Assembly (NCBI RefSeq): GCF_038003525.1
Contig: NZ_JBBOPI010000001.1
Coordinates: forward strand, 363,001-427,000
Source: Solibacillus sp. FSL H8-0538
Lineage (GTDB): Bacteria > Bacillota > Bacilli > Bacillales_A > Planococcaceae
Length of the DNA: 64,000 bases
Direction of reading: 5' to 3'
Both the position numbers and the translations under genes were made by a program. Below the pieces are notes generated by a model. It made no database searches and was not told where the DNA came from. It saw only the letters and a program-made list of their open reading frames with translations. This document shows, in pieces, positions 2,075 to 63,734 of the stretch (positions within the stretch are counted from its first letter, which is position 1; each line of letters begins with the position of its first letter).

Positions 2075-4288
2075 ATGAAAATTACTAGCAAGCTACTCCT
2101 CACGCTTTTTCTTATATTTTGGACTGTGTTTGCGACTCTTTGTTTTTTGTTTGAAAGCTCCGAGTATGTAGGGAAAACTTATTTTGAGTCAGAGTATTTT
2201 GAACAAAATCATTACGAGTTTCTTGATGGACTAAGACGGTATGAATTAAATACTTTTGATGCAGAAGAATCCAAAAAAAGTATAACTGTAACAGAGGAAG
2301 AAATCGATTATTACCGTAATTACTATGGTACGTTGGCAGAACAAGTAACAATTATTAAGCAACAGTATGCAGATGATATTGACGAAAATAAATCTACGTA
2401 TGATGAAGAAACAACCACTATTCTAGAAGAAGAGCGAGACCGTAAAATTGCTGAAGTGAGAGCGAATTTTGAAGATGATTCGGTCGTTGAGGCAAAAATC
2501 CGTGCCATTAAAGAAAAGGCTCTAGATAACTTTGCGACTTCTTGGAAACAAGAGAAGAATAACTTTAAAAACAATTATAGTTATTTTGCTTATGATTTTA
2601 CGAATGTAGATACGGGCCAAAACTATTCTTCAGGCGACGTGAAGGAAGCATCGGTATATAAGCAAACATTTGGTCAAAATAAGAAATTATTTGATGTGGA
2701 TGAAGAAAGATATATTTATGTGAGTGAATATTCGGAAGAAATCGGTTTGCTTTATGATTCGTTTAAAGTAAATACAGTGGGTGCTCAGTTCAGCGGCACA
2801 ATTACAATACCAAAATCATTAATGAAGCGTGCTGATTTTGCAGAAAATTATGAGGCATTTACGATTTCGAAAATGATATACTACATTGTTTGGGCAACAG
2901 GGGCTCTTACGTTATTGGGGCTATTGTTCTTTGCAAAGCCAAAACTCTCTTCATTTCATGTGTTGCCAGCAGTACGTCAGGTGTTTACAAAATGGCCGAT
3001 AGATACGCGCGTTGTAGTTGTGGGCATATTTATATTTTTCACAGTTGCGTTTTTAGACGGCTTCACGGATACGATACATGCAATGGGGTATTATTACGAG
3101 CATTATTTAGATATTATGAATTTGATTGAGCTTGCAGTGCTCGTTGTACTAAGCTATATAGTCTTCAGTGCACTAATTATTAGTGCGGTTTGGCTGTATG
3201 AGGATGTTCGTTCGCTTGAGCAGTTAACACAGCAATTACAACAGACGATTACGTATAAAATCTGGGAAGCGGCAACGGGGATGTTTTTAATTCGTTCAAT
3301 CGGCGTACAGTCACTCGCAATGATTATTGTGTTCTTCCTTGCAGGGTTGGGCTTGGCGGGTGTGCTACTGGCACCGGAACTGTTATTAATATATATACCA
3401 CTTTTTGTATTAGTTTTAATTCCAACACTGTTTGTCTTCATGCGTCGAATGGGCTACCTAACTCGTATAATGATGCAGACGAAGGATATGGCAGAGGGGC
3501 GTTTAACGAGCAACATAGAAGTAAAAGGCAAGTCGCCGTTTGCGGATCTCGCGCGTAATTTAAATGATTTGCGTGATGGCGTAAGTAATTCAATGACAGA
3601 ACAGGCGAAAAGTGAGCGTATGAAAACTGAGCTTATTACTAATGTGAGCCATGATTTGCGCACACCGCTAACGTCGATTATTACGTATACAGATTTATTG
3701 AAAAATCCGGATTTAGATGCAGAGGAGCGCGCGAAATATATTGGGATTTTGGATAAAAAATCGGCGCGTCTCAAAACATTAATAGAAGATTTATTTGAAG
3801 TATCAAAAATGGCGAGTGGCAATATAGAGCTCGTGAAGCAGCGTGTTGATTTAGCACAGCTTCTGCAGCAGGCAATCGGAGAGCACGGAGAAGATTATAC
3901 AGCAGCGGGACTAGATTTACGTGTGACAATTAGCGAACAACCAATTTTCGCGTATGTGGATGGCCAAAAATGGTGGCGCGTAGTGGATAATTTAATTATT
4001 AATGCACGTAAATATTCATTACCGGGCACACGGGTTTACGTGAATTTGAAGGTAACTGGCAATGAGGCCGAATTCACCGTGAAAAATGTAGCGAAGTACG
4101 AGCTCAATGAAGACGCAACGGAATTAGTCGAGCGCTTCAAACGTGCCGATACATCGCGCCATACGGAAGGCTCTGGACTCGGGCTTGCTATAGCGCAGTC
4201 GATTGTCGATTTACACGGCGGCCGGATGAATATTTCGGTAGACGGTGATTTATTTAAAGTGTGTGTTGTTATTAATATTGCTTATTAG
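2075..4288 (+). CDS. Membrane sensor histidine kinase
   Basis: 737-residue kinase partner of the upstream regulator. One N-terminal membrane helix is followed by an extracytoplasmic region of about 240 residues rich in charged coiled-coil sequence (roughly residues 30-265). Several further helices follow between about 270 and 465, then a HAMP-like linker (MAEGRLTSNIEVKG). The HisKA domain has the phosphoacceptor His526 in NVSHDLRTPLTS. The HATPase domain ends with the G2 box GSGLGLAIAQS from residue 699. The N-box NLIINARKYS is intact, so the enzyme should be active. Longer and with more helices than a standard two-helix kinase; the sensed signal is unknown. Confidence 0.88.
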   Translation: MKITSKLLLTLFLIFWTVFATLCFLFESSEYVGKTYFESEYFEQNHYEFLDGLRRYELNTFDAEESKKSITVTEEEIDYYRNYYGTLAEQVTIIKQQYADDIDENKSTYDEETTTILEEERDRKIAEVRANFEDDSVVEAKIRAIKEKALDNFATSWKQEKNNFKNNYSYFAYDFTNVDTGQNYSSGDVKEASVYKQTFGQNKKLFDVDEERYIYVSEYSEEIGLLYDSFKVNTVGAQFSGTITIPKSLMKRADFAENYEAFTISKMIYYIVWATGALTLLGLLFFAKPKLSSFHVLPAVRQVFTKWPIDTRVVVVGIFIFFTVAFLDGFTDTIHAMGYYYEHYLDIMNLIELAVLVVLSYIVFSALIISAVWLYEDVRSLEQLTQQLQQTITYKIWEAATGMFLIRSIGVQSLAMIIVFFLAGLGLAGVLLAPELLLIYIPLFVLVLIPTLFVFMRRMGYLTRIMMQTKDMAEGRLTSNIEVKGKSPFADLARNLNDLRDGVSNSMTEQAKSERMKTELITNVSHDLRTPLTSIITYTDLLKNPDLDAEERAKYIGILDKKSARLKTLIEDLFEVSKMASGNIELVKQRVDLAQLLQQAIGEHGEDYTAAGLDLRVTISEQPIFAYVDGQKWWRVVDNLIINARKYSLPGTRVYVNLKVTGNEAEFTVKNVAKYELNEDATELVERFKRADTSRHTEGSGLGLAIAQSIVDLHGGRMNISVDGDLFKVCVVINIAY

Positions 4289-4296
4289 GATGAGGG

Positions 4297-4327
4297 GTCC
4301 CGCAGTGTATGCGGGGCTTTTTGTTTT
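4297..4327 (+). terminator. Terminator after the histidine kinase
   Basis: GTCCCGCA (4297-4304) pairs with TGCGGGGC (4310-4317, one G-T pair), followed by TTTTTGTTTTG. Confidence 0.8.
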
Positions 4328-4330
4328 GGG

Positions 4331-4500
4331 CGTTGTTGGTGAACGCACTAACTGGGAGTGTGAACGAACGAACTTCGTGTGGTAACGAACCAACGTGCCC
4401 CCTGAACGAACAAACAGCATACGCGAACGCCCCAACTTGCCTCTTGAACGAACCAAGTCGATGCGAACGCGAACGCACTAACTTCGGGTGTGAATGAACC
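4331..4500. repeat. Tandem-like GAACGAACCAAC repeats
   Basis: About eight diverged copies of a unit close to GTGAACGAACCAACT at roughly 15-25 base intervals, between the kinase terminator and a convergent gene. Copies end in ACGCACTAAC, ACGAACAAAC or ACGAACCAAG. Read on the reverse strand, the units encode a meaningless LVRS-type repetition, which I attribute to the DNA repeat. A matching block occurs near 29.9-30.05 kb. Confidence 0.6.
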
Positions 4501-4521
4501 CCCCTCACCCCCCATTCCCAA

Positions 4522-4827
4522 TCACCTCTTATTCGCTGCAATGATCACCCATGTACTCCCAATGATAACAACAACTCCAAACAATATCCCAACCCATTCA
4601 CCGATAAATTCCAATCCAAACGGCAGCAAAATCGCTAAGCCGCCTACTATGTACATAAAAAGACCGACTGTACGGGCTAAAAGTTGTTTGTCACCTTTAA
4701 AAGTGGAGGCATTGAAGCCTGATATTAAATGTAAGTATTCCTTCTTCCAAATGAGCCAGCCAAGTCCGATTGAACCGAGCCCGACTAAAAAACAAACAAT
4801 AAATCCGGCAATGATTTCAGCGTCCAT
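4522..4827 (-). CDS. DUF3784-like small membrane protein
   Basis: 101-residue membrane protein starting MDAEIIAGFIVCF, with three hydrophobic helices. The motif DKQLLARTVGLFMYIVG between helices 1 and 2 is typical of the DUF3784 family. The ATG at 4827 has GGGAGTG upstream and gives a family-sized protein; the frame continues upstream but without a better start. Function unknown. It ends beside the repeat block and is divergent from the metallophosphoesterase gene. Confidence 0.7.
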   Translation of the reverse strand: MDAEIIAGFIVCFLVGLGSIGLGWLIWKKEYLHLISGFNASTFKGDKQLLARTVGLFMYIVGGLAILLPFGLEFIGEWVGILFGVVVIIGSTWVIIAANKR

Positions 4828-29897: not shown

Positions 29898-30045
29898 AGG
29901 GGTGTGAACGAACCAAGTGACATGCTGAACGAACGGACTTGTAGTGTGAACGAACCAACTCGTGCCGCGAACGAACTAACATTTGTGAACGAACCAACTC
30001 ACCATGTGAACGCACTAAACCAGACGCTATCCGCACTAAAATCAG
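29898..30045. repeat. GAACGAACCAAC repeat block, second site
   Basis: Six to eight units close to GTGAACGAACCAACT / GTGAACGCACTAAA between convergent genes, with the same consensus as at 4331-4500. The last units merge into CCGCACTAAAATC, the form seen at 1005-1165, which links the two motif versions. Confidence 0.6.
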
Positions 30046-30144
30046 CCCGCATCCCAACCTGAAACCCCAAAAAAACACTCATCCAACCCCCAACCAATCA
30101 AAAACCCGCCTCCATCTAAATAACAGATAAAGGGGGGCCAAAAA

Positions 30145-31167
30145 TCACCACTTTGCAATATGTTCTTCGATGCAGCCGAGCATTTGCTGGATATGTAGCA
30201 CAGTGCCGTCCTCCAAAGAAATTTTACCATTATAGTAACCGATCATTTGATGGACTTCGGAGCGGATGAGCTTGGCGTTCGTTTCGGCAATGCGTTCGAA
30301 AAAGGGTGTGAACGTTAATGAAACATTGTCGCTGAATTTTGATGTGACGGTCCAAGGTTTCATGAAATTCCAACGGTCATAAGTAAAAATGACGTCCTCA
30401 TGAATTTTCGTCATGGTCCCGTTAATGAATACAGCATTTTCGGTCATGCCGGTGCCGTCTGTCCATTGTCCGCCGAAATTCAGTCCGATGCGCCGCCCGC
30501 GAATGCGCTGCGAGGCCATACCCCAATTCCATGTTGCTTCGCGTGGCCATACACCGCGGCCATAATCCAAGACGGCGAAGCAATCTTCTTCATTAAATGT
30601 AAAGCGGCGGTCGCCAATTGTGACATGGCCGGAAGTTGGCAAAGTATGGTGCTTCGCTGTGAACTGGAATGTTTGGCGATTCCACGGGATGACGACGTTT
30701 AACGAATCATCATCTTTTGGATGGTGAATTGTTAACTCTGCATGTAAACGATCACCGTCAAAATTAGGCGAAATGACGGTTAACTGCGTGTTTCCGTTAA
30801 AATAAGTAATTTGGATGGATAATTCACTATTAGCAAACGTTACTGTCTCTAGCACCTGTGTGGGCATCTTTATTTTCGTGCCGAGTGGAATGGTGATTGT
30901 TTTCTCGAAATAGCGTTGCGTTTCGTATTCAAGGAAATAGACAAAGCAAACGGCCGCATAGTCTAGATGGCTGATTGTTGCAGAAAATAAAATATCCTCG
31001 CCGTACACACACCAGTAGTTCCACTTTTTTTTACGTAAAAAGTGGCCAGTTAAATTACAATCAATGATCGGCTTGCGTGCAAAACCAATTGCTTCCGGAT
31101 TTAAATTCCCTTTTTTATCACATAGTGGTGTGAGCTGAACAATCTCTCTTTCTGCATGCTGCTTCAT
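30145..31167 (-). CDS. DUF2804-family protein
   Basis: 340 residues starting MKQHAEREIVQLTPLCDKKG. Typical DUF2804 features include the opening ARKPIIDCNLTGHFLRKKKWNYWCVYGED and the late WNWGMASQRIRGRRIGLNFGGQWTDG. Predicted beta-rich, cytoplasmic, no known catalytic residues; function unknown. Ribosome binding site GGAGGGG is visible just upstream of the ATG. Confidence 0.8.
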   Translation of the reverse strand: MKQHAEREIVQLTPLCDKKGNLNPEAIGFARKPIIDCNLTGHFLRKKKWNYWCVYGEDILFSATISHLDYAAVCFVYFLEYETQRYFEKTITIPLGTKIKMPTQVLETVTFANSELSIQITYFNGNTQLTVISPNFDGDRLHAELTIHHPKDDDSLNVVIPWNRQTFQFTAKHHTLPTSGHVTIGDRRFTFNEEDCFAVLDYGRGVWPREATWNWGMASQRIRGRRIGLNFGGQWTDGTGMTENAVFINGTMTKIHEDVIFTYDRWNFMKPWTVTSKFSDNVSLTFTPFFERIAETNAKLIRSEVHQMIGYYNGKISLEDGTVLHIQQMLGCIEEHIAKW

Positions 31168-49061: not shown

Positions 49062-50291
49062 CTAAAACAAATTCAACTTCTGTGTGTTTTCAATTTGTCT
49101 TGCTTGAATCGCATTAACAGCCCATTCCGCAATCGGTGTGGCTACTGCTTTTGCAAGTAACACGGTAACGGCATTGCCGATTTGTTTGTATTGCTTATCT
49201 AGACGGTTATTTTCTTGCACGCTCATATTTCCGCCATCACTGAATTCATACCAATCCGGGAACGTTTGGATACGGGCAATTTCTTTTACAGACAGGCGGC
49301 GATGATTTTCTGCCCCATCTGGGAAAATCCATTGATCCTTGTCCACTTTTTGCATTGGCAGTCCAGCTGGATATAGGGGAGCCTGACGCCCGGATGCTTG
49401 AATCGTAAAACTTTGTTCATCCCAACATTTTTTACGGTTACGGGACATATAAATACTTGAATACGAACCAGTAAAGTAAGGACCTGGCGCCTCTTCTAAA
49501 TCACCGATCGCATCACGTAGCGTAACAAATGGAAATAATGCAGTGCCATGCGTCGGCTTCGGATACTTATATTTAAAGGATAAATCATTGCGAACACCAA
49601 CGATAAAAACACGTTCGCGCAGTTGAGGAACGCCGTAATCCCGACTATTCAATAGCTTATATTGAACGCTATATCCAGCAGCTGCAAAGTCCTTCGTAAT
49701 TTGACGAATCACTTGACCCTTACCAAGCGTCAGCATACCCTTCACATTTTCGGCAACAAACACAGCTGGCTTTGCTTGTGTAATGCAGCGAATAAAATGG
49801 ATATACAGGAAGTTACGCTCATCATCAACTAAACGGGGGCCCGCCTCACTAAATCCAGGACATGGAAACCCACCAACGACTAAATCCGCTTTGGGAAAGT
49901 TTCGCACTTTGCGAATATCAATGCCATGCTGAAAATTATGATTAGGGAAGTTGCGGCTATACGATTCATTCGCCTCGACAAATAAATCATTCGTATAAAT
50001 CGTATGGAAAATACTTTGCCCACGCACCTCATCGAATGCTTCCTTAGATTGAAATGCCTCCATCGCTGCTTCTTCACCAATAACCGCAGCTAGACCGGCA
50101 AGCTCGAAGCCCAAGTCTAGCCCCCCACAGCCGGTAAAGAGGCTTATTACATTAAACTTTTCTGGCATTCCCAATATATTTCTATTGTCCTCGAGTCGTA
50201 TGATTTTACGGTTATGTTCATTCTCTATTTTCTTGTGTAATATATCCCGAATACTTGAATGTTCATCATATATTTCTTTTGTCCGTACCAT
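49062..50291 (-). CDS. C5 cytosine DNA methyltransferase (island border)
   Basis: 409 residues. Motif I VISLFTGCGGLDLGFELAG starts at about residue 48; motif IV GGFPCPGFS carries the catalytic Cys; motif VI is AENVKG; motif VIII is QLRERVFIVG; the late motif is QIGNAVTVLLAKAV. It has an N-terminal extension of ~45 residues. The PCPGF variant differs from the common PPCQGF. Base composition is like the chromosome, unlike the AT-rich island genes beside it. It probably belongs to the same older locus as the McrB-like gene at the far side. Confidence 0.9.
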   Translation of the reverse strand: MVRTKEIYDEHSSIRDILHKKIENEHNRKIIRLEDNRNILGMPEKFNVISLFTGCGGLDLGFELAGLAAVIGEEAAMEAFQSKEAFDEVRGQSIFHTIYTNDLFVEANESYSRNFPNHNFQHGIDIRKVRNFPKADLVVGGFPCPGFSEAGPRLVDDERNFLYIHFIRCITQAKPAVFVAENVKGMLTLGKGQVIRQITKDFAAAGYSVQYKLLNSRDYGVPQLRERVFIVGVRNDLSFKYKYPKPTHGTALFPFVTLRDAIGDLEEAPGPYFTGSYSSIYMSRNRKKCWDEQSFTIQASGRQAPLYPAGLPMQKVDKDQWIFPDGAENHRRLSVKEIARIQTFPDWYEFSDGGNMSVQENNRLDKQYKQIGNAVTVLLAKAVATPIAEWAVNAIQARQIENTQKLNLF

Positions 50292-51236: not shown

Positions 51237-52310
51237 TTGAGTAACAAAAAACCGACTGTCATAGATATGTTCTGTGGCTGCGGAGGACTTTCTAGAGGTT
51301 TTATGGATGCAGGATATGAAGTTTTGCTTGGAATAGATAATAATGATCATGCTTTAAAAACATTTAAAGAAAATCATGGTGATGCAGTTGCCATGAATGG
51401 AGATCTTTTTCAAGGATCAACAATTTTACAGATGGCAGATCTAACTAATAATAAAAATGTTGATTTAATTATCGGAGGACCACCATGCCAAGGCTTTTCA
51501 CTTACAGGTAAGCGTGAAGAGAATGACGAAAGAAACTCGTTGTTTCAAGCAATGGTTAACGCCGTAGCATTTTTTCAACCAAAAGCTTTTGTGTTAGAAA
51601 ATGTGCCGGGTCTTGGGACTTTATATAAAGGAAAAGCTAAGGAAGAAATCTATAAGGAATTTTCAAAACTAGGCTATACTATTACGGATAAAATTTTATT
51701 TGCGCCAGATTATGGAGTGCCGCAAATAAGAAAACGTTTATTCTTTGTAGGATTAAAAAATGGAGAAGTGTTTGAGTTTCCGGAACCCTTAGTAACTTCA
51801 GATAAATATGTTGGATGTGAAGCAGCTATAGGAGATTTACATGACTTTACAGATGATTTGGGATCAGATATTGCGGAGTATAAGAAACCTGCTACAACAC
51901 CGTATCAAAAGAAAATGAGAAATAATACGGATAAATTATTCAATCATGTTGGTACAAAACATACTGATCTTGTAATAGATGTAATTTCACAAGTACCTGA
52001 AGGTGGAAATCACAAAGATTTACCCCCAGGTGTTGGCGAGAGTCGTAAATTTAATGAAGCTTGGACACGTTACCATAGTCAAAAACCTTCAAAAACAATA
52101 GATACAGGACATAGAAATCACTTTCATTATAAATATCACAGAGTACCATCTGTTCGTGAAAATGCTCGTCTACAGTCATTTCCAGACGATTTTGTATTCT
52201 ATGGGAATAAGACACAACAATATAAACAGGTCGGAAATGCAGTGCCCCCATTATTAGGCTACGTATTAGGCAAACAGCTAGAGAAGTATTTAACAGATGG
52301 TGAGAACTGA
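51237..52310 (+). CDS. C5 cytosine DNA methyltransferase 1 of the cassette
   Basis: 357 residues, TTG start after GGAGTGGAG. Motif I TVIDMFCGCGGLSRGF, catalytic GGPPCQGFS, FVLENVPG, QIRKRLFFVG and the final QVGNAVPPLLGYVLG are all present, so it should be active. First gene of the AT-rich operon; its stop overlaps the next methyltransferase start by one base. A methyltransferase pair is typical of systems with an asymmetric target, one enzyme per strand. Confidence 0.92.
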   Translation: MSNKKPTVIDMFCGCGGLSRGFMDAGYEVLLGIDNNDHALKTFKENHGDAVAMNGDLFQGSTILQMADLTNNKNVDLIIGGPPCQGFSLTGKREENDERNSLFQAMVNAVAFFQPKAFVLENVPGLGTLYKGKAKEEIYKEFSKLGYTITDKILFAPDYGVPQIRKRLFFVGLKNGEVFEFPEPLVTSDKYVGCEAAIGDLHDFTDDLGSDIAEYKKPATTPYQKKMRNNTDKLFNHVGTKHTDLVIDVISQVPEGGNHKDLPPGVGESRKFNEAWTRYHSQKPSKTIDTGHRNHFHYKYHRVPSVRENARLQSFPDDFVFYGNKTQQYKQVGNAVPPLLGYVLGKQLEKYLTDGEN

Positions 52311-53530
52311 TGAAGACATATAATTTTATTGATATTTTTGCTGGTTGTGGGGGACTTTCAGAAGGGTTTAAGAAGAATGGTGCATTTAATATGCTTGCGG
52401 CTGTAGAATGGGAGAAACCACAAGTTGAAAATTTAATTAACCGTTTATCTACAAAATGGGGGTATTCTGATGCCACAGAAAAAGTAATGCGTTTTGATAT
52501 TCAACGCACTGAGGAACTTTTCAACGGATGGGACAATGACCACGAGTATGGAGCACATAATGGTTTAGATAAACTTGTAGGTGAAAGAACAGTGGATTTA
52601 ATTATTGGTGGGCCGCCATGTCAAGCTTACTCAATGGCAGGACGAATTCGCGATAATAAAGGTATGAGAGAAGACTATAGGAACTATTTATTTGAAAGTT
52701 ATTTGTCAGTAGTTCGACGTTATCAGCCTAAACTATTTGTTTTTGAGAATGTACCTGGAATGCTAAGCGCTAGACCAGGTGGACAGCAATATGTTACAGA
52801 TCTTATAAGAAAAGATATTGAAGCATCAGGGTACAGTATTATTAATGATTTAAAAGGATTTGCACAATTAGACTTATCTGAGTATGGTGTACCTCAAAAG
52901 AGAAAACGAGTAATTATTATTGGATTAAGAAATGATTTATTTCTTAATGCGCAAGAAGTTTTGGAAGAATTTTATAAAGTAGGTTTACCAAAATATAAAG
53001 AACAAACAAAGACAGTGAAAGATGCAATAAAAGATTTACCTAAGCTGTATCCTCTAACGAAAATAACAAAAGTAAAGGGTAAAAAGTACTCGCATACAAT
53101 TCATAATAATGAGGGCGTATACAATCACATTCCTAGATATCATAGTGAGCGAGATATTGAAATATTTCAGTTATTAACTTTGGATATTGAAAAAGGTGAG
53201 TATAAATATACTTCAAGTGAAGAGTTAAAAAAACTTTATACCCAAATGACAGGTAAAGTGTCTAATGTGCATAAGTATCATGTGCTTAGATGGGAGAATC
53301 CGAGTAACACGATCCCAGCCCATTTGTATAAGGATGGACTAAGACATATCCATCCTGACTCAAATCAAGCCCGTAGTATTACAGTTAGAGAAGCGGCCAG
53401 ATTACAAACATTTGATGATGATTATGAGTTTATTTCAAGTGCAGGAGATAACTATAAAATGATTGGGAATGCGGTTCCGCCTAGATTTTCAGAGAAATTA
53501 GCGGAAGCGTTAATTCCTATTTTAAATTAA
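52310..53530 (+). CDS. C5 cytosine DNA methyltransferase 2 of the cassette
   Basis: 406 residues. Motif I FIDIFAGCGGLSEGF, catalytic GGPPCQAYS, FVFENVPGML, QKRKRVIIIG and MIGNAVPPRFSEKL. It is not a duplicate of the upstream enzyme: the target-recognition region is longer and different. Translationally coupled to it. Strong terminator downstream. Confidence 0.92.
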   Translation: MKTYNFIDIFAGCGGLSEGFKKNGAFNMLAAVEWEKPQVENLINRLSTKWGYSDATEKVMRFDIQRTEELFNGWDNDHEYGAHNGLDKLVGERTVDLIIGGPPCQAYSMAGRIRDNKGMREDYRNYLFESYLSVVRRYQPKLFVFENVPGMLSARPGGQQYVTDLIRKDIEASGYSIINDLKGFAQLDLSEYGVPQKRKRVIIIGLRNDLFLNAQEVLEEFYKVGLPKYKEQTKTVKDAIKDLPKLYPLTKITKVKGKKYSHTIHNNEGVYNHIPRYHSERDIEIFQLLTLDIEKGEYKYTSSEELKKLYTQMTGKVSNVHKYHVLRWENPSNTIPAHLYKDGLRHIHPDSNQARSITVREAARLQTFDDDYEFISSAGDNYKMIGNAVPPRFSEKLAEALIPILN

Positions 53531-53604: not shown

Positions 53605-54582
53605 CTATAGTCTTCCAGAGGATAAAAATAGACCATAAACATTTTCACGATGATATTTAATATTGGATTTATCGGGCTTAAAAAAATCATTTTCAGGTGT
53701 TTTAATTTTTACACCATTTAGAGAAGTTAAATACTCGTTCTCAACCTTTTCATGTACCATAATAGTAAATTCATCACTTAGTGTGAAAAATCCTTTGTCA
53801 AAGGCCCAGTGAATATCTCTACTCAATGGAATTCCATTGTTAGGTATATAGGATCCACCATGACTTTTAGGTCTAATATGTGCTGTTTCTAAGTTATTAA
53901 AAGCTCCATATTTTATAACGTTTCCAGTAATAGCACAAACCCCTCCATAACCAGTCATAACAAAATCTCTAAATGATATAGCATTAAACAAATCTTCTAG
54001 ATTATTTGATGATTCTTGAGCTTTCTTTGCGACGGTATTATCAATAACGGGACTTAAATTTCCGTTTTTTAGGAATGAGTTAATTTTTTTGTCAGTTTCA
54101 CTCAACTGTTCTTCGTGTATGGCATGTTCTCCTCGAATATTGGATTGAGTAATAATGTCGCAATATTTGTTATATAATGGATCATTTGCCTTTACTAAAT
54201 CCAAAAAAAATACGGACTGAATGCCTTCTTCAACAGGAATTTCCTCTTTTTTTAAAATTACAATATCATTACTAGAAAATAGGTATAAATTGTCTTCTAA
54301 TGCGTTATTCAAATATATTCTGTACTCATTACGAGTACCATCATGATATGCATCATTATGATATATATAATTGCAATAAATTTTTGCTGGTCTACTTAAG
54401 TAAAGTGGAACTATAGGTAAAAGAAATGAATCATTTTTAACGGTTTTTGAGAGATACGGAAAAAAAGAAAGTACATTTTCATTCTTAGAAATATAAATAT
54501 ATCTACCTCTTGATGGTATAGGTTTAGATGGAGTAACGCTACCTAATTCTTGATGCCCAAGTTTTTTTAAATAATAAGTCAT
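53605..54582 (-). CDS. HNH endonuclease
   Basis: 325 residues. The C-terminal third has an HNH domain: the CAITG segment (single Cys of the usual pair), LETAHIRPKSHGGSYIPNNGIPLSRDIHWAFDKG, with the His, Asn and His of the beta-beta-alpha-metal motif. The N-terminal ~190 residues have no recognised domain and may recognise DNA. ATG at 54582 has AGGAGTGG at the right distance; a GTG at 54594 lies inside that site. Placed on the opposite strand between methyltransferases and the GHKL-Z1 genes, it is a good candidate for the restriction partner of the two methyltransferases. Confidence 0.82.
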   Translation of the reverse strand: MTYYLKKLGHQELGSVTPSKPIPSRGRYIYISKNENVLSFFPYLSKTVKNDSFLLPIVPLYLSRPAKIYCNYIYHNDAYHDGTRNEYRIYLNNALEDNLYLFSSNDIVILKKEEIPVEEGIQSVFFLDLVKANDPLYNKYCDIITQSNIRGEHAIHEEQLSETDKKINSFLKNGNLSPVIDNTVAKKAQESSNNLEDLFNAISFRDFVMTGYGGVCAITGNVIKYGAFNNLETAHIRPKSHGGSYIPNNGIPLSRDIHWAFDKGFFTLSDEFTIMVHEKVENEYLTSLNGVKIKTPENDFFKPDKSNIKYHRENVYGLFLSSGRL

Positions 54583-54699
54583 AGAAATTTCCACTCCTAT
54601 AATAATTCAAATATATTATATTATTAAATTATACTATACAATTAGCCTAAAGATATTTCTTTAATTTAGTAATAATATAAATTTTGTAGGTGAATATGT

Positions 54700-56118
54700 A
54701 TGGAAGTTGAAATTGTGAATCCAGTTGTAGGTAACTTTATTAAGTCATTGCGAGATATAGGTTATATTTTTGAAGTTGCGGTAGCGGATATATTAGACAA
54801 CAGTATTACTGCTGGGGCGGAGAACATCAAAATTTTGTGTTTGCCGGAACCAGAAATAAATTTCTCAATACTAGATGATGGTTGGGGCATGGAGGAAGAA
54901 GATCTAATAAATGCGATGCGATTAGCGACGCATGATCCAGACAGAACTCGAGATCCGAATGATCTAGGTAAGTTTGGTTTAGGGTTAAAAACTGCATCTT
55001 TTTCACAATGTCGAAAACTTACTGTGTTATCTAAAAGGAATGAGACTATCTCTATTAAACAGTGGGATTTGGATTATATTTCTGAGAAGAATGAGTGGTT
55101 ATTAATAACTCCTGAAGTTGAGGTTTTTGAAAATCACCCACTATTTTCTGAATTTAAAAATTTGGAATATGGCACATTAGTAATCTGGGAGAACATAGAT
55201 TCGTTCAAAGCAGAAGATATCCCTGTACGTGTCGAAGAATTACATCATCATCTTTCATTGGTATTCCATTATTTTTTAGAGGGTAAAGTTCCAAAACGCA
55301 AACGTCTTAATATATTCATTAATGGGGCAAATGTAGAGGCCTTTAATCCATTTAATCCAAATCATAAAGCAACGCAAGAATTTCAAGAAGAAAAAATTTA
55401 CTTCAATAACTATAAAATAAATATTCAGCCATATATCCTGCCACATCACTCTAAGTTATCTCAGAAGGAATTTGATCGTTATGCTACTGCAGAAGGATAT
55501 ACAAAATCACAGGGATTTTATCTTTATCGTGGATATCGATTATTGATTTATGGTACTTGGTGGGGGCTGCATAAGATGAATGATACCCACAGGCTAGTAA
55601 GAATAAAAATTGAGATTCCGTCGAATAAAGATTCTGAATGGGGAATTGATATAAAAAAATCTACTGCCCGTCCAGTACCAGAGCTACGAAAAGATTTAAA
55701 AAGAATTATTCAACAGGTTACTACTAAAGGTTCTAGGCCCTATACAGGTCGAGGAAAACGAATGACTACAAGTAGTACTATTCATTTCTGGGACCAAATA
55801 GCAGATAACGATCAAATTCGATTTGTTATCAACGAAAAACATCCACTTTTAGATCAGCTACAAGTTGATTTAAATGAGCAACAACAAAATCTTTTAAAAA
55901 TCTTTTTGAAAAGTTTAGAAGGTTACTTGCCAATTGATACGATTGTGGCACAGATTCATGCTAATCCCCATAAGGTGAAACAAGAGGCAACAATTGAAGA
56001 AATTGATTTGAGCCAATTGGTTCAAAACTTGAAAGCAAAGGGGCTTAGTAAAGAAGAAATTCAAGAACTATTAAGTACAGAAATTTTCAGTGGTGAGAAT
56101 GCGGGGTTGCTTAAATGA
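54700..56118 (+). CDS. MORC/MutL-like GHKL ATPase (Mza-type)
   Basis: 472 residues. A Bergerat ATP-binding fold lies at the N-terminus: N-box VADILDNSITAGA, G1 DDGWGM, G2 GKFGLGLKTASFSQC. The usual catalytic Glu of the N-box is Asp30; Asn34 is kept. An S5-like middle region and a C-terminal helical tail (LVQNLKAKGLSKEEIQELLS) follow. Such ATPases occur in restriction-type operons with Z1 ATPases and are the likely ancestors of eukaryotic MORC proteins. ATP-driven clamp or loop formation on DNA is expected. The stop overlaps the Z1 gene's start by four bases. Confidence 0.87.
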   Translation: MEVEIVNPVVGNFIKSLRDIGYIFEVAVADILDNSITAGAENIKILCLPEPEINFSILDDGWGMEEEDLINAMRLATHDPDRTRDPNDLGKFGLGLKTASFSQCRKLTVLSKRNETISIKQWDLDYISEKNEWLLITPEVEVFENHPLFSEFKNLEYGTLVIWENIDSFKAEDIPVRVEELHHHLSLVFHYFLEGKVPKRKRLNIFINGANVEAFNPFNPNHKATQEFQEEKIYFNNYKINIQPYILPHHSKLSQKEFDRYATAEGYTKSQGFYLYRGYRLLIYGTWWGLHKMNDTHRLVRIKIEIPSNKDSEWGIDIKKSTARPVPELRKDLKRIIQQVTTKGSRPYTGRGKRMTTSSTIHFWDQIADNDQIRFVINEKHPLLDQLQVDLNEQQQNLLKIFLKSLEGYLPIDTIVAQIHANPHKVKQEATIEEIDLSQLVQNLKAKGLSKEEIQELLSTEIFSGENAGLLK

Positions 56119-58868
56119 AGGTAAACGAAACCTATCAAGGTATATATAGAGCTATTGTTAATGTATTACAGCATAAAAAAGGTGCGCTTGAATCGGATGA
56201 AATAAGTAACAGTATCCGTAAATGGAGAGATAATGTTGAGAAATTTGGATGGGATTTTTTAAATGCATTTGGTATAGATGACATAACGCCACTTGATGAA
56301 AAAGATTGGAGGGCTTTACAGGAAGAATTAGAATCAAATTTCATTGTGCGAATTGAAAAAGGCATTTTAGTTCAAAGTAAAGAGTCACGCAATCGAGATT
56401 TGACATGGTGGAGTGGTAAAAAGAAATTAGTGAATGAAAACTACTATTTCAATAATTATCAAACTTATATGCAAAATAGTTTACCTAAAAATGTATTGGA
56501 TATAACAGATGAAGACACAGCTGTAGTAATGAATAATCTAGCAGATCCAGAAGGAAATCCATTTTCGATTAAGGGGATGGTTGTAGGTCATGTACAGTCC
56601 GGCAAAACAGGAAATTACGCTGCTCTAATTTGTAAAGCAGCAGACGCTGGATACCGATTTATTGTGGTCATAGCGGGTGGGCAAAATAATTTACGTGACC
56701 AAACACAGAAAAGGTTACAGGAATCTTTTATTGGAGTAAATGCCAAAGGTGTAGGAAGTTTAGCTGGATTTAGACCTGATAAAATGCCAGATTGTTTAAC
56801 TAGTGAAACCAGTGATTTCAAAAAAGAAATTGCTCAGGGACGTCAAACTACAAATTTTGAAAATATGCAATTACCCATATTAGTTGTGATTAAAAAGCAT
56901 ACAAAAACACTTGATAGATTATTAGAGTGGCTAGATAAGTATCCAAATCAGATTGATAAGCCAATGCTAGTTATTGATGACGAATCGGACTATGCATCAA
57001 TTAATACTAAGGATGAAAATAATCCTACTGTAATTAACAAAAAGATTCGTTTATTATTACGAAAGTTTACGAAAAGTGCATATGTGGCATATACAGCAAC
57101 ACCATTTGCTAATATTTTTATCGATCATGCAGCTAAAAGTGAACAATTTGGGGATGATTTATTCCCACGGGATTTTATTTATGCTTTAAGTCCGCCAGAT
57201 AACTACTTTGGGGCACAGGTAATTTTTAATGAAGAAGATAGTGAAGACAGTGAAGAAATTAAAAGTAAATATGTAGTTCATGTGCCAAATGATGAAGTTA
57301 TATTAGATTTAGACTTTGATAAAGAAGAACAATCCTATGAAGAAGCACTTGCATTGAATGCTAGTTTTTTAATTCGACATAAATCTGATTACATTGTAGA
57401 AGAATTACCACCTTCTTTATTAGAAGCGGTACGGGTGTTCGTCTTAAACGTAGGGATTCGTAATTTAAGAGGTCAATTTAAACATAATAGTATGCTTATC
57501 CATATTACAAGATTCACTAGCATCCATATGGATATTAAATCTTTAGTAAAGGAATATCATGACAATCTGAAGCGAGCTTTAAAGACATACGGTAAACTTC
57601 CAATTGATATGCATCGAAGCAAAAGTATTTTGGATATAAAAGATACTTTCAATAAAGTTTTGGGAGATATTGAATTTTCTTTTGAGGAAGTATTATTGAG
57701 TGTTTGTGATTCAATCGAAAGTATTCAGGTCATTGATGTTCATCAAAAAATGAAATTACCCCTACAATACAGAGATGATAGTCAAACTAATGCAATTGTA
57801 ATAGGCGGATTAAGTTTAGCAAGAGGATTCACATTAGAAGGATTAAGTGTTAGTTATTTCCTTCGTACAACAATATATTATGATACTTTAATGCAAATGG
57901 GACGTTGGTTTGGTTATAGAATGGGCTACCAAGATTTATGCAGAGTGTATATGACAGAAAGTATGCATCGGAATTTCGCTCATATTAATAATGCAACTAA
58001 AGATTTAATGAAAAAGTTAAAAGTTATGGAGTACGAAAAACGTACACCAGAGGAATTTGGATTAGCTGTCCAAACACATCCAGATAGTATTTTACAGGTC
58101 ACAGCTCGTAATAAATCTAAGTTTACAGAAGAAATGTATTTAAGTATGGATTTAAAAGGCCAACTTAAAGAAACTCGTTATATTAGTAATAAAGAAAAAG
58201 ACATTACAATAAATGAAGAGTTAGCTAAAAAATTTATAGGAAACTTATATAATAATCTTGAATATGAGAGAAAAACTGCCGGATTAGTTTGGCGTGAAGT
58301 CAATAATGAATTAATTGAGCAATTTATAAGACAGTATAAATTCTATGCACAGGATTTATTAGGATTACGAACGAGGTTCCCGATTGCATTTATTCGAGAG
58401 TTTATAAATGATTATGAAGGTAAATGGGATATTGTAATTAATAATGGTGAATGTGAAGAAATCGAAATTGAGGATGGCATTAAGATTGGTGTTAATAGAC
58501 AAAAAAGGACAGTCGATTTAGTAGAAGGTTGTTTTAAAACTAAAAAAAGTCAATTAGCACGGGGTAACGCAGAGTCAATTATGTTTGATAATGATTTAAA
58601 AAAAGAGAAACCAGAGAAAATGCGTGAAAATCTAAATAATCCTTTGTTGTTTGTTCACTTTTTAACTTTAAATGTAGAGGATAAAATTACAAAAAAAATA
58701 TTGACTAAGGATGTTATTGGATTAAGTTTTAGCTTCAATAATGATGGCGCATTAAATACAGATTTAGTTAAAGTAAAAATTAATAGTGTTTACATAAAAC
58801 AAATAGAAGATGCGATAAAAAATGTTGATTTTGATGAAGAATATGATGAGGTGTATGAAGATGAGTAA
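56115..58868 (+). CDS. Z1-domain superfamily II ATPase
   Basis: 917 residues. Walker A GHVQSGKTGNYAALI (about residue 157), Walker B MLVIDDESDYAS, YTATPFANIFID (motif III-like), GGLSLARGFTLEGLSVSYF and QMGRWFGYRMGY (motif VI-like) define the Z1 family, a helicase-like protein confined largely to defence operons. It probably translocates on or remodels DNA with the GHKL partner. The end overlaps the next gene by eight bases. All motor motifs are intact. Confidence 0.92.
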   Translation: MKVNETYQGIYRAIVNVLQHKKGALESDEISNSIRKWRDNVEKFGWDFLNAFGIDDITPLDEKDWRALQEELESNFIVRIEKGILVQSKESRNRDLTWWSGKKKLVNENYYFNNYQTYMQNSLPKNVLDITDEDTAVVMNNLADPEGNPFSIKGMVVGHVQSGKTGNYAALICKAADAGYRFIVVIAGGQNNLRDQTQKRLQESFIGVNAKGVGSLAGFRPDKMPDCLTSETSDFKKEIAQGRQTTNFENMQLPILVVIKKHTKTLDRLLEWLDKYPNQIDKPMLVIDDESDYASINTKDENNPTVINKKIRLLLRKFTKSAYVAYTATPFANIFIDHAAKSEQFGDDLFPRDFIYALSPPDNYFGAQVIFNEEDSEDSEEIKSKYVVHVPNDEVILDLDFDKEEQSYEEALALNASFLIRHKSDYIVEELPPSLLEAVRVFVLNVGIRNLRGQFKHNSMLIHITRFTSIHMDIKSLVKEYHDNLKRALKTYGKLPIDMHRSKSILDIKDTFNKVLGDIEFSFEEVLLSVCDSIESIQVIDVHQKMKLPLQYRDDSQTNAIVIGGLSLARGFTLEGLSVSYFLRTTIYYDTLMQMGRWFGYRMGYQDLCRVYMTESMHRNFAHINNATKDLMKKLKVMEYEKRTPEEFGLAVQTHPDSILQVTARNKSKFTEEMYLSMDLKGQLKETRYISNKEKDITINEELAKKFIGNLYNNLEYERKTAGLVWREVNNELIEQFIRQYKFYAQDLLGLRTRFPIAFIREFINDYEGKWDIVINNGECEEIEIEDGIKIGVNRQKRTVDLVEGCFKTKKSQLARGNAESIMFDNDLKKEKPEKMRENLNNPLLFVHFLTLNVEDKITKKILTKDVIGLSFSFNNDGALNTDLVKVKINSVYIKQIEDAIKNVDFDEEYDEVYEDE

Positions 58869-59790
58869 TCCATGGGAGAAACTAACACCATTGACACAAA
58901 ATCGTGTTAAAAATATTCATCAACATGTGATTCATTGGGTTGCTGATGCTAATAATAGAGTGGGTTTAATGATCCAGTGTAAAGAAAGTTCGTTCACAGA
59001 AGATCACCTTATTAAGTTAAAAGGTATTCAAGTAGAATTGGATAAAACAAGCTCACCTAATAAATTAATATTAATTTTGAATGATAAAAGTGATTTGGAA
59101 ATCTTTGAAGTGCTATGTAAAGACTTGATTTCTGTTGCAGCGGCTAATGAAAATGATCAAGATATGATTTCGAAAATGGCACAAAGACTATTACGTTGGA
59201 AAAAGCTGCTACAACAAGATTTGAAAAATTCTTTCTCGCCTCAAAAGCAAATGGGGTTATTTGGAGAGCTGACTTTTATACAAACGGTTTTAAAAGATAA
59301 AATAGGTTTAGAAGAATCTATTAAAAATTGGAATGGACCAAAATTCGAGAAACAAGATTTTGTTTTAGAAAATTCAGCTGCTGAGGTAAAAACTTATAAA
59401 ACATCGAATGAAAAAGTAGTTGAAATTTCTTCAAAAGAGCAACTATATACACCCAAAGAAAACTTATTTTTAGCCGCATTTTCTTTATCAGAAAATAGAG
59501 CAGGATATACAGTAAAAGATCTTGTGAATGATATTTCTGAGAATGCGAAAGATCCATTAATACAAGAACTGTTTATGAATAAAATAGAAGCATATGGTTT
59601 TTTCCCAGAGTTAGTCAAAGAACCATTGATTAGTTTTATAGTTGATGATTCAACCTATTATAAAATTGAATCAGAGTTTCCTAGAATTATTCCTGGAGAT
59701 TTGTCTCAAGGAATTCAGCGCTTAAAATATACAATTGATTTAACATCTTGTAACGCTTTTGAAGTTGAAAAAGAGGAAATGGAATTTTGA
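58861..59790 (+). CDS. PD-(D/E)XK motif protein (DUF4420-like)
   Basis: 309 residues starting MSNPWEKLTPLTQNRVK; GAGGTG lies upstream inside the Z1 gene. Nuclease-type residues: Glu in MGLFGELTFI, Asp in KQDFV, and the Glu-x-Lys of SAAEVKTYK. This is the expected PD-(D/E)XK layout and suggests that it cuts DNA as the effector of the system. The position between Z1 and AIPR is the standard one. Confidence 0.83.
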   Translation: MSNPWEKLTPLTQNRVKNIHQHVIHWVADANNRVGLMIQCKESSFTEDHLIKLKGIQVELDKTSSPNKLILILNDKSDLEIFEVLCKDLISVAAANENDQDMISKMAQRLLRWKKLLQQDLKNSFSPQKQMGLFGELTFIQTVLKDKIGLEESIKNWNGPKFEKQDFVLENSAAEVKTYKTSNEKVVEISSKEQLYTPKENLFLAAFSLSENRAGYTVKDLVNDISENAKDPLIQELFMNKIEAYGFFPELVKEPLISFIVDDSTYYKIESEFPRIIPGDLSQGIQRLKYTIDLTSCNAFEVEKEEMEF

Positions 59791-59804
59791 TTAGGGGGTA
59801 AATC

Positions 59805-61850
59805 ATGTTTACAATAAAGGATTTCCATCAAGATTTTTTACAATCTATTTTGTCAGATACAGAAAGCCGAGGATTATTAAAACCTCAATCATTTTTCGAA
59901 CTTTTTTGTCAAGACTTAGTAGATGTCGGAGATTTGTCAAAAAATTATACAGCGGCATCCTATTACAAAACTGGAGTAGAAGTTTATGGCTATGATTATG
60001 ATGAAGAACGTAAATTATTTACACTAATTAACTTTCAGTTTTTCCAATCAGATGAAATAACTACCCTAAATAGACAACAAATACAAACAAAGTTTAATAG
60101 ATTAAAAAAATTTATAGTTGAAGTGAAAAACGGTCTTCATTTAGATTTAGAAGAAACATCAGATGGTTATGAATTAGCCTTTAAACTGTTCCATGAACTA
60201 AAAGCTGGGCATATAGAAAAGTTTCGATTAATGGTTTTGACAGATGGAAATGTTACAAGAACTATTTCTGAAATACCATCAGAATCTATTGATGATATAG
60301 GATATGATTACCGAGTTATAGATATTAATTATTTATATAAAATTTATGCTTCTCAAATGGACGGTGCTTCATATGAGATTGACACAAAAATTCCATGTTT
60401 GCCAATTAACAATGATTCGGATGATTATCAAGCCTATTTATCAATATTAAATGGTGAACAATTATATGAAATCTACGATGAATACGGCCAAAAGTTATTA
60501 GAACAAAATGTAAGGACATTCCTGCAATTTAAGGGCGGAGTTAACAAGGGAATTAAAAATACAATTGAAAACAGACCAGAGTTATTTTTTGCATATAACA
60601 ATGGAATTACAGCAACGGCAACATCGGTAGAATATGAAAATGGTTTTATTACTAAGTTAGTTGATTTTCAAATTGTTAATGGTGGTCAAACTACTTCTGC
60701 TATATACGCTGCCAAAAAGAATTCTAAATTGGATATTTCAAAGGTAAAAGTACAAATGAAATTATCTGTGGTTAAGGAGATTGAAAATAAAGGTCAGTTT
60801 GTTTCAAAAGTATCTGAGTATGCAAATACACAAAATAAGGTCAACAAATCGGATTTCTTTTCTAATAGTCCTTTCCATAAAGAAATGAAAGACTATTCAA
60901 AACGTATTTGGGCTGCCGCAAGTGGTGGGTCTCAATTAAGAACACACTGGTATTATGAGCGCGTGCGTGGAGAATATTTAAATGAACAGGCATATTTAAC
61001 AACAGCTAAAAAGAAACAGTTTGTAATTGAACATCCTAAAAAACAGCTAATTGATAAAACATTACTAGCTAAAAGTGAAAATACATGGTTAAAGAAACCT
61101 TGGATTGTTTCTAAAGGTGCACAGTATAGTTTCGCAGAGTTTGCTGAACAAACTACGGAGAAATTAGAAAAAGATGCTTTAGCTATTACAGAAAGCTATT
61201 TTAAAGAATCAATAGCACGTATTATTTTATTTAAAGCTACTGAAAATATAATTTCTAAAGCAGATTGGTATGAAAATGCTTATCGTGCGCAAACAGTTAC
61301 TTATGCAATAGCTTATTTGGCGCATCTATGTGAAAATCAAAAACTATATCTTAACTTCCTTAAAATTTGGGAAGAGCAAATAATCTCTACAGAGTTAATA
61401 GAAATTATGAAGGCTATAACAAGAGAAGTTTATGAACTTTTAATGGACCCACCTGGTGGATTTAAAAACGTAGGTGAATGGTGTAAAAAAGAGCAATGTT
61501 GGCATGTTGTAAAAAATGCTGATATGGATATTGTATTGCCAAAGAAACTCGTAAATACAAAACAAGAAACTCAATATGTCCAAAGAGAAGAAAGAGAGAC
61601 TAAAAAAGTAGATAAAGGTATCGAACTTCAAACTTTTGTAGTAACTATGAATTTTGAAAACTGGATGGATTTATTTGCTTATTATAGTAGACCTGAGAAT
61701 AGAAGAGACCTTTCAGTAACACAAAGGGACATTTTGATGAAATATACAGAAGGAAAAATTGCATTTCCATCTGAAAAACAATGCAAAATATTATATGATG
61801 TGTATCAAAAAGCCAGTGAAGTTGGTTGGGAACCAGGAATAAGAGTGTGA
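59805..61850 (+). CDS. AIPR-family (abortive infection phage resistance) protein
   Basis: 681 residues, AGGGGG before the ATG. The AIPR core is clear: FLQFKGGVNKGIKNTI...RPELFFAYNNGITATATSV...FQIVNGGQTTSAIY. The family is found in abortive-infection and restriction loci; molecular activity is not established. The N-terminal ~200 residues (with possible nuclease-like character) and the C-terminal helical part are less conserved. Last gene of the coupled run; a weak terminator follows. Confidence 0.88.
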   Translation: MFTIKDFHQDFLQSILSDTESRGLLKPQSFFELFCQDLVDVGDLSKNYTAASYYKTGVEVYGYDYDEERKLFTLINFQFFQSDEITTLNRQQIQTKFNRLKKFIVEVKNGLHLDLEETSDGYELAFKLFHELKAGHIEKFRLMVLTDGNVTRTISEIPSESIDDIGYDYRVIDINYLYKIYASQMDGASYEIDTKIPCLPINNDSDDYQAYLSILNGEQLYEIYDEYGQKLLEQNVRTFLQFKGGVNKGIKNTIENRPELFFAYNNGITATATSVEYENGFITKLVDFQIVNGGQTTSAIYAAKKNSKLDISKVKVQMKLSVVKEIENKGQFVSKVSEYANTQNKVNKSDFFSNSPFHKEMKDYSKRIWAAASGGSQLRTHWYYERVRGEYLNEQAYLTTAKKKQFVIEHPKKQLIDKTLLAKSENTWLKKPWIVSKGAQYSFAEFAEQTTEKLEKDALAITESYFKESIARIILFKATENIISKADWYENAYRAQTVTYAIAYLAHLCENQKLYLNFLKIWEEQIISTELIEIMKAITREVYELLMDPPGGFKNVGEWCKKEQCWHVVKNADMDIVLPKKLVNTKQETQYVQREERETKKVDKGIELQTFVVTMNFENWMDLFAYYSRPENRRDLSVTQRDILMKYTEGKIAFPSEKQCKILYDVYQKASEVGWEPGIRV

Positions 61851-61919: not shown

Positions 61920-63734
61920 ATGCGGAAAAAAGCATTTGCAGACTGGTTAACCAGTATTGGGTTATCTACAGTAACTATAGGAAATTATCTCAGAGGTATA
62001 AGGTACACGGAGGAAAAATTTTCTCATTTAAGTGTTGATGGATATTTGAATGTATACGAATTAAATGATGCGGCAAAATTAGATAGAATCCTTCAAAACG
62101 AAAGTTTTAGAGATTATGATAAAAAAGGCAACCGTATGTGTAGTTCCGGTCTAAAAAAATACCAAGAATTTTTAATAAGCACAAACTTATCGAATAGTGA
62201 GGAAGGAATTATGCCGAGTAACTTGGAAGATGTAGTCCTTATCAAAATAAATAAATCATACAAAGCAAATATGACACCAGAAGAATTATATAAAGCAACA
62301 AGTGTTAGCTGGGTAGCATCTTTCGAAAAGACAGATAAGCGTGATATCAAACATTATTGTGCAATTTATCAAAATAAAATTATTGAAGTATACGATTTTT
62401 TAGGATCGGAAGAAGAAATTCCAAAGAGAACGCCTTCACGTTTTATTTTACATGGAAATGTTGCTGACGAAAAAATTCGCCAGAAACTAATGTACCTAGA
62501 TGTTAGTTCTATACATAAAGGTTCAGGTAATCCGATCAAATATACAAGTCTAGATACTTTACTACAACTAAAAGAAAATCCAGATGCTTTATTACCCAAT
62601 CCAATGGAGGATGAAGATGAGTTTAATGAGGAAATATCAGTACAACAGATCCCTTCATCGGACCTAATCCCACACATTCACCAATACATCACTTCAAAAG
62701 GCTTCAACTATTCCCTATCCAACATCAAAAACCTCTACCTTTCCCTACGCAGCAAACCATTCGTCATCATTTCCGGTATTTCCGGGACGGGGAAGACGAA
62801 GATTGTGCAGTTGTTTGCGGAGAGCGTTGGGGCGACGGAGGAGAATGAGCAGTTTAAGTTGATTCCGGTGCGTCCGGATTGGAGTGATAGTTCGGAGTTG
62901 CTTGGGTATACGGATATTAAAGGGGAGTTTGTGGAAGGGCCGATGACAAAGTTGGTGAAGCATGCACTAGCCTATTCAGATCACCCACATTTCTTATTAC
63001 TTGATGAGATGAATTTGGCACGTGTGGAATATTATTTCAGTGATGTACTGAGTATCATGGAAAGTCGTAGAAAAGTGGATGACGAATTTACTTCATCCAC
63101 ACTAATAGAACTTCAGGAAGGTGAGAAGTTAACTTTACCAGGCAATGTGTACATAATAGGTACTGTCAACATGGACGAGACAACGCATCCTTTTAGTAAA
63201 AAGGTGTTAGACCGTGCAAATACAATTGAATTCAATGAAATCAATTTATCGGATTTCGGCTTTTTAACAAGCGCAGAAAACGTCGAGCCTGTACAACTTG
63301 CAAATAGCTCACTACAAGCAGACTATATTCAGTTAAAAGATGCGATTGTAGGCCACGAAGACATTGTGCGGGAAGTATCCACAGAACTTGAAAAAATTAA
63401 TGCTATTTTACAAGTTACAAATGCACAAGTAGGCTACCGCGTTCGCGATGAAATTTGTTTTTATATGATTCACAATCAAGAAGGAAGCTTGCTTGATAAA
63501 AATATTGCCTTGGATTTCTGTTATATGCAGAAAATTTTACCCCGTATTTCAGGTACTGGGGAAAGTGTTGAGAAAGTGCTAGCACAGTTGTACAAGTTCC
63601 TGACAGACCGGGAGTACTCGCGCGGGGAGTATATTGATTTTGACCGAGAGAACTATCCACAAAGCGTGAAAAAAGTAGTGGATATGTTAAGGAGGTTAAA
63701 GGAGGATGGCTTCACGTCTTTCTGGGTCTCGTAA
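61920..63734 (+). CDS. McrB-like AAA ATPase with N-terminal specificity half (chimeric)
   Basis: 604 residues. An N-terminal helical domain (FADWLTSIGLSTVTIGNYL) precedes a PUA/EVE-like region (VVLIKINKSYKANMTPEELY ... HYCAIYQNKIIEVYDF). The McrB-type AAA motor follows: Walker A GISGTGKTK (about 285), Walker B FLLLDEMNLARVEYYF, sensor GTVNMDETTHPFS. McrB proteins are GTP- or ATP-driven restriction motors that recognise modified or specific DNA through the N-terminus. The first ~245 codons are AT-rich like the cassette; from about base 62,655 the composition turns to chromosome-like GC, suggesting a recombinant gene. AAAGGGGGA precedes the ATG. Confidence 0.85.
   Translation: MRKKAFADWLTSIGLSTVTIGNYLRGIRYTEEKFSHLSVDGYLNVYELNDAAKLDRILQNESFRDYDKKGNRMCSSGLKKYQEFLISTNLSNSEEGIMPSNLEDVVLIKINKSYKANMTPEELYKATSVSWVASFEKTDKRDIKHYCAIYQNKIIEVYDFLGSEEEIPKRTPSRFILHGNVADEKIRQKLMYLDVSSIHKGSGNPIKYTSLDTLLQLKENPDALLPNPMEDEDEFNEEISVQQIPSSDLIPHIHQYITSKGFNYSLSNIKNLYLSLRSKPFVIISGISGTGKTKIVQLFAESVGATEENEQFKLIPVRPDWSDSSELLGYTDIKGEFVEGPMTKLVKHALAYSDHPHFLLLDEMNLARVEYYFSDVLSIMESRRKVDDEFTSSTLIELQEGEKLTLPGNVYIIGTVNMDETTHPFSKKVLDRANTIEFNEINLSDFGFLTSAENVEPVQLANSSLQADYIQLKDAIVGHEDIVREVSTELEKINAILQVTNAQVGYRVRDEICFYMIHNQEGSLLDKNIALDFCYMQKILPRISGTGESVEKVLAQLYKFLTDREYSRGEYIDFDRENYPQSVKKVVDMLRRLKEDGFTSFWVS

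What the first reader, a model, noticed from the sequence alone, without database searches (positions are those of the whole stretch)
61920..63734. Abrupt composition switch inside the McrB-like gene: chimeric specificity half and motor half
The first ~735 bases are AT-rich, like the cassette. From about 62,655 the sequence becomes C-rich (to ~62,760), then G-rich and chromosome-like, just before the Walker A motif. The protein frame stays intact. This looks like recombination that joined an incoming recognition half to a resident AAA motor, a direct view of specificity swapping in a restriction system.
Basis: partly seen in the sequence, partly recalled or inferred. Interest (0 to 1): 0.72.

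Follow-up and report, generated by a model that had tools for sequence, protein, structure and literature searches.

The report
Swappable reader on a restriction motor
This bacterial defence gene joins an exchangeable DNA-reading front half to a conserved motor half, and just inside the junction lies a 330-base stretch of very odd base composition; a weaker form of its first part recurs in most relatives, so it is not simply where 'foreign' DNA meets 'host' DNA.

Summary
The switch is real, but it is not a step from cassette-like to chromosome-like DNA. It is a local patch: third codon positions are A/C-rich over 62,631-62,774 and G/T-rich over 62,775-62,963, then ordinary. Its C>G stretch is the most extreme of ~353,000 coding windows sampled from this genome.

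Module exchange is well supported. Relatives with motors 86-93% identical carry unrelated N-termini, and DNA homology starts ~70-120 nt before Walker A, about where the window switches.

'Resident motor' is doubtful: the motor is sporadic (13 of 261 genomes) and elsewhere also follows Mza genes.

Unexpectedly, the C-rich arm recurs family-wide (27 of 30 clusters), while the G-rich arm is strong only in some members. Flips are stronger where readers were recently swapped (p about 0.01-0.03, exploratory). I favour a recombination-linked scar; a Rho-utilisation-like element is the main rival. The cause is unproven.

The parts
61920..63734 (+). mcrB-like gene, 604 aa: N-terminal reader module fused to an AAA+ GTPase-type motor
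   Evidence: ORF; PF07728 AAA_5 E 1.2e-6; phmmer match to solved E. coli McrB 6hz4 E 1e-6
61920..62195 (+). N1, residues 1-92: all-helical subdomain, function unknown
   Evidence: AlphaFold2 helices H2-12 to H72-92, pLDDT 83-92; Pfam Phage_int_SAM_5 / KilA-N only at E 0.05, below cut-off
62220..62585 (+). N2, residues 101-222: likely modified-base reader with some YTH/PUA-like resemblance
   Evidence: Foldseek best hits 5hmC-specific endonuclease PD-T4-3 (E 2e-4 to 4e-4, probability 1.00, TM only 0.33-0.36), then YTH domains (E >= 0.017); no Pfam hit
62595..62654 (+). Predicted disordered linker between reader and motor, residues 226-245
   Evidence: pLDDT below 50 over 226-244
62631..62774 (+). 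A/C arm of the patch (C-rich, G- and T-poor third positions); family-wide part begins near 62,660
   Evidence: segmentation; most extreme C>G coding window in the genome sample; family profile; 27 of 30 clusters positive
62655..63731 (+). AAA/McrB motor module; its left edge is the recurrent exchange junction
   Evidence: tblastn matches in most homologues with other N-parts start near residues 228-253; homology of swapped pairs starts -71 to -123 nt before Walker A in most cases
62775..62798 (+). Walker A, GISGTGKT (residues 286-293); the C-to-G switch lies here
   Evidence: sequence; GISGTGKT in 97 of 101 homologues; segmentation
62775..62963 (+). G/T arm of the patch; strong here and in a subset of relatives, not family-wide
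   Evidence: segmentation; cluster test n.s.; zG 3.7-4.7 in L105/L106, 4.2 in L006, 2.5 in L003
63168..63179 (+). NMDE: NxD form of the McrB GTPase signature
   Evidence: NxDE in all 101 homologues; NxD branch described in PMC11090510
63706..64000 (+). Start of mcrC (628 aa, runs to position equivalent 65,592, past the window)
   Evidence: L082:2706-4592: DUF2357 E 2.9e-74 and PDDEXK_7 E 6.8e-50
54700..61850 (+). AT-rich upstream cassette related to MzaB-MzaE (GHKL ATPase, Z1, DUF4420 PD-(D/E)XK, AIPR)
   Evidence: PADLOC and Pfam; NCBIfam Mza models hit with strong E-values but far below their equivalog cut-offs

Best explanation
The gene is an McrB-type GTPase motor (NxD branch) with an exchangeable N-terminal reader. 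Shown: in this family the motor plus mcrC is a conserved block of about 3.5 kb that carries different N-terminal modules; the junction recurs about 100 nt before Walker A, and reader and motor genealogies conflict. Also shown: just inside the junction the motor's leading DNA carries a C/A-rich arm family-wide, followed in some members by a G/T-rich arm; the window is the extreme case. Inferred: modules are exchanged by homologous recombination in the conserved motor start, with the other end outside the gene. Inferred, less sure: the mirror-image patch is a by-product of this exchange, i.e. strand-asymmetric repair or conversion around breaks or invasions near the P-loop, laid down at exchanges and later eroded.
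For: Different N-termini on 86-93% identical motors. Homology block from about -100 nt to about +3.4 kb in most swapped pairs. L052/L053 keep 93%-identical DNA upstream while the DNA between is replaced; L052 there carries a second McrB/McrC-like pair and a different reader. Switch at the P-loop in many homologues (29% of McrB-type sites above z 3, 2% of 89 other Walker A sites). Left arm in 27 of 30 clusters, p ~1e-6; control offsets null. Bias in 4-fold, Y- and R-ending codons. Left and right arms correlate, rho 0.47. Swapped clades flip more: 2.18 vs 0.34, p 0.011.
Against: The right arm is not significant family-wide, so a symmetric process is not general. The swap-flip association is exploratory: 20 clades, significant at identity thresholds 0.78-0.86, not at 0.72-0.75. 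Sequences are not independent, so the rho 0.47 overstates the evidence. Polarised changes show no continuing drive towards A/C in the left arm (43 to, 50 away), which needs episodic deposition. I know of no bacterial repair process with exactly this strand bias; biased gene conversion as described (AT to GC) predicts G and C up on both sides, whereas A rises and G falls in the left arm. L002/L004 are swapped but show no flip.
Confidence: 0.55

Rival explanations
1. The C-rich, G-poor arm is an intragenic Rho-utilisation (Rut)-like element under weak compositional selection, giving conditional transcription termination before the motor and mcrC. The G/T arm is incidental or helps pausing.
For: Most extreme C>G coding window in the genome sample; homologues at median 97th percentile. 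Left arm family-wide, right arm not. Synonymous turnover normal, which a composition-only signal allows. In B. subtilis, Rut sites show C>G and U>G bias, low structure, and can be intragenic (PMC12350095).
Against: T is depleted too, while B. subtilis Rut motifs are U/C-rich. Arms correlate with each other and with swapping. The bias is absent or reversed in some clades. In the window the arm is predicted to pair with the G/T arm. No terminator activity tested.
Confidence: 0.25
2. One reading: an AT-rich incoming recognition half was joined to a resident chromosomal motor, and the composition step is the seam.
For: N part and Mza genes GC 0.30-0.35, distal motor and mcrC 0.39-0.42, genome 0.386. 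Switch coincides with the module junction.
Against: The patch is neither donor-like nor host-like. The GC step is in 91% of homologues, window at 81st percentile. The motor is sporadic, 13 of 261 order genomes, and lies downstream of Mza genes in L005, L016, L023, L024, L025, L028, L041 and L062.
Confidence: 0.2
3. The patch reflects selection on codon choice or mRNA structure for translating the motor start.
For: C-ending and A-ending codons rise in the left arm across codon classes.
Against: C also rises in 4-fold codons, where C is not the usual optimal ending in low-GC Bacilli (general knowledge). Folding is no stronger than within-arm synonymous shuffles, mean z -0.11 over 20 sequences. 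Other Walker A genes lack it. No lowered synonymous change.
Confidence: 0.1

Closest known systems
McrBC type IV restriction (E. coli McrB/McrC; census in PMC11090510)
   Same: AAA+ McrB motor with N-terminal specificity module, followed by McrC with DUF2357 and PD-(D/E)xK nuclease
   Different: Signature is NxD, not NxxD. Reader has no Pfam family. Activity untested.
Methyltransferase-associated NxD branch of McrB GTPases (PMC11090510, left there for a later paper)
   Same: NxDE motif in all 101 homologues; C-5 methyltransferase-like ORFs upstream in the window (by motif)
   Different: No tree against that paper's set was made. No coiled-coil fusion, unlike CoCoNuTs proper.
Target-recognition-domain exchange in Type I HsdS and domain movement (PMC3077401, abstract seen)
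   Same: Recognition modules exchange against conserved sequence
   Different: Different protein family; the junction-linked composition patch is, as far as I know, not described there.
Mza system (MutL-Z1-AIPR, PADLOC/NCBIfam)
   Same: Genes upstream match MzaB-E
   Different: Scores far below equivalog cut-offs; related cassette, not a confirmed member.
Rho-utilisation sites of B. subtilis (PMC12350095)
   Same: C>G bias, can be intragenic
   Different: T-poor; not tested for Rho binding.

Membership tests
McrBC type IV restriction system | McrB-type AAA+ domain with Walker A, Walker B and McrB signature | tested here: met
   AAA_5; PDB McrB hits E 1e-6; GISGTGKT, LLLDEMN and NMDE in the sequence. 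Signature is the NxD variant.
McrBC type IV restriction system | Adjacent McrC with DUF2357 and PD-(D/E)xK nuclease | tested here: met
   PF09823 E 2.9e-74, PF04411 E 6.8e-50
McrBC type IV restriction system | N-terminal module that binds modified DNA | tested here: inconclusive
   Structural resemblance to 5hmC nuclease PD-T4-3 and weakly to YTH, TM 0.36 or less; binding not testable
McrBC type IV restriction system | GTP-driven, modification-dependent cleavage | not testable with these tools
   needs biochemistry
CoCoNuT | Long coiled-coil fused to an NxD McrB | tested here: not met
   N part is a helical domain plus an alpha/beta domain and linker; McrC keeps its nuclease domain
Mza | MzaB, C, D and E equivalogs | tested here: not met
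   Homologous but well below NCBIfam equivalog cut-offs
GC-biased gene conversion tract | AT-to-GC enrichment irrespective of strand | tested here: not met
   Left arm: A up, G down
Rho-utilisation site | C>G bias | tested here: met
Rho-utilisation site | Rho binding and Rho-dependent termination | not testable with these tools
   needs experiment

The most novel reading that the evidence does not exclude
Exchange of recognition modules leaves a strand-switched base-composition scar (A/C-rich, then G/T-rich, centred on the P-loop) at a recurrent junction, so past specificity swaps in McrB genes could be read and ranked from sequence alone, and an unknown strand-biased repair or conversion process acts there.
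Probability: 0.3. Interest if true: 0.75.

Novelty: new variant of a known kind. Interest (0 to 1): 0.5.

Why it matters
Reader exchange in McrB systems is expected from their domain diversity; here it is mapped to one recurrent junction with near before-and-after pairs and conflicting trees. A junction-linked, strand-switched composition signal in saturated homologues is unexpected. If tied to exchange it would offer a sequence marker of specificity swapping and a handle on how such swaps happen; if it is a Rut-like element it would point to built-in transcriptional control of a nuclease.

Tried and rejected
Paralogue as conversion donor: none in the genome. A general property of P-loop genes: no, 2% of 89 others above z 3. 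RNA hairpin: folding not beyond composition (one earlier run timed out; one search used a faulty strand check and is replaced). Codon optimality alone: C rises in 4-fold codons too. Synonymous constraint: not lower in the arm. Ongoing mutational drive: polarised changes do not show it. DSB or homing-endonuclease scar with indels: only L013 shows an odd P-loop, no insert pattern seen. The NERD-UvrD helicase as a second case: only 7 loci scored, too few. Phage or plasmid origin: only distant hits, below 60% identity.

Full report
OBSERVATION. The ORF 61,920-63,734 is intact. Residues 241-280 end mostly in C or A, residues 281-345 mostly in G or T, and later codons are ordinary. Segmentation gives an A/C arm at 62,631-62,774 and a G/T arm at 62,775-62,963, LLR 40.5 against a null maximum of 12.1. 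The flip tops 1.4 Mb of related DNA apart from an apparent N-run artefact and 953 ORFs after amino-acid control. Its C>G stretch ranks first among about 353,000 coding windows from a sample of this genome.

GENE AND SURROUNDINGS. The C-terminal part is an McrB motor with the NxD signature, overlapped by mcrC with DUF2357 and PD-(D/E)xK domains. The N-part model (mean pLDDT 77) has a helical domain, an alpha/beta domain and a disordered linker ending at residue 245. The alpha/beta domain resembles the 5hmC-specific nuclease PD-T4-3 and, weakly, YTH domains, so a modified-base reader is likely but not shown. Upstream lie Mza-like genes and ORFs that look like C-5 methyltransferases (by motif).

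MODULE EXCHANGE. The motor is found at 49-69% identity in many Bacilli, usually followed by mcrC, with N-parts from about 100 to 660 residues. Pairs with 86-93% identical motors have no detectable N-part similarity: L016/L026, L018/L040, L052/L053, L007/L011, L017/L030, L061/L063. Their DNA homology begins 71-123 nt before Walker A and in most pairs ends near +3.4 kb, about the end of mcrC; L018/L040 and L008/L018 continue to about +5.1 kb. L052 and L053 are at the same locus: 93%-identical DNA upstream, different DNA between, and the shared block again from -97 nt. The intervening stretch in L052 includes a second McrB/McrC-like pair. For the window's own reader, L106 groups with the window by reader but with L003 and L141 by motor; reader data reject the motor grouping (p 1.9e-4), motor data reject one clade of all reader-sharing sequences (p 1.7e-15), while AAA data alone do not firmly reject the group window+L002+L105+L106 (p 0.07, in the smaller set). 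These groups were partly chosen after seeing the trees, so the p-values are indicative. Exchange among these relatives is nevertheless well supported. Whether the window gene is itself the product of a recent exchange is not resolved.

WHAT THE COMPOSITION MEANS. The GC difference between N part and distal motor is family-wide: 91% of 99 homologues, mean +4.1 points, window +6.9 (81st percentile). It may mean that N modules are replaced more often and keep AT-rich composition; that is inference. The patch is something else. Averaged over 86 homologues, C and A rise while G and T fall from about 33 codons before Walker A, with no signal further upstream. By clusters at 72% motor identity the left arm is positive in 27 of 30, p about 1e-6, and control offsets in the same genes are null; the right arm is not significant. 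Synonymous sites are saturated between the window and these relatives, so shared ancestry of the bases does not explain it.

CAUSE. No extra RNA folding, no lowered synonymous divergence. Left and right arms correlate, and clades with exchanged N modules have stronger flips (2.18 vs 0.34; p 0.011; robust at thresholds 0.78-0.86 only). The thresholds were examined after the data were seen, so this is a lead. Polarised changes show erosion or balance, not drive. I therefore favour an episodic, recombination-linked scar and rank a Rut-like element next (PMC12350095). Neither is proven.

LIMITS. One genome in the genus, so no close before/after pair for the window. Homologues were found by similarity to the window's motor. 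Homologue statistics share ancestry and host composition. The genome background is a 0.5 Mb sample including the window.

Noticed in passing
L013:8001-9080: Weizmannia acidilactici McrB homologue reads GIPEQEKQK where nearly all others have GISGTGKTK; looks like two compensating 1-nt indels that destroy Walker A, or an assembly error.
   Followed up: no
L038:193-2127, L042, L056: A NERD-UvrD-type helicase near McrBC shows a similar amino-to-keto flip close to the motif SSKGLDF (z 6.2, 4.7, 4.2); seven loci scored, too few to judge.
   Followed up: partly
window 4200-4550 and 30000-30150; L082:9282-9696: Dispersed arrays of a short GAACGAAC-like repeat in apparently noncoding DNA of this genome; they cause other strong keto/amino flips in the window.
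   Followed up: no
window 49062-50291 (-), 51237-52310 (+), 52310-53530 (+): Three ORFs with C-5 cytosine methyltransferase-like motifs beside the Mza-like genes and an HNH ORF (53605-54594); MzaB also hits the BbrUII/HgiDII restriction model weakly.
   Followed up: no
L052:2973-7055: A second, different McrB/McrC-like pair sits inside the stretch that differs between L052 and L053, upstream of the first system.
   Followed up: partly
L025: Record titled Pseudomonas sp. ISL-84 carries a typical Bacillus-type McrBC locus; probably mislabelled or contaminated.
   Followed up: no
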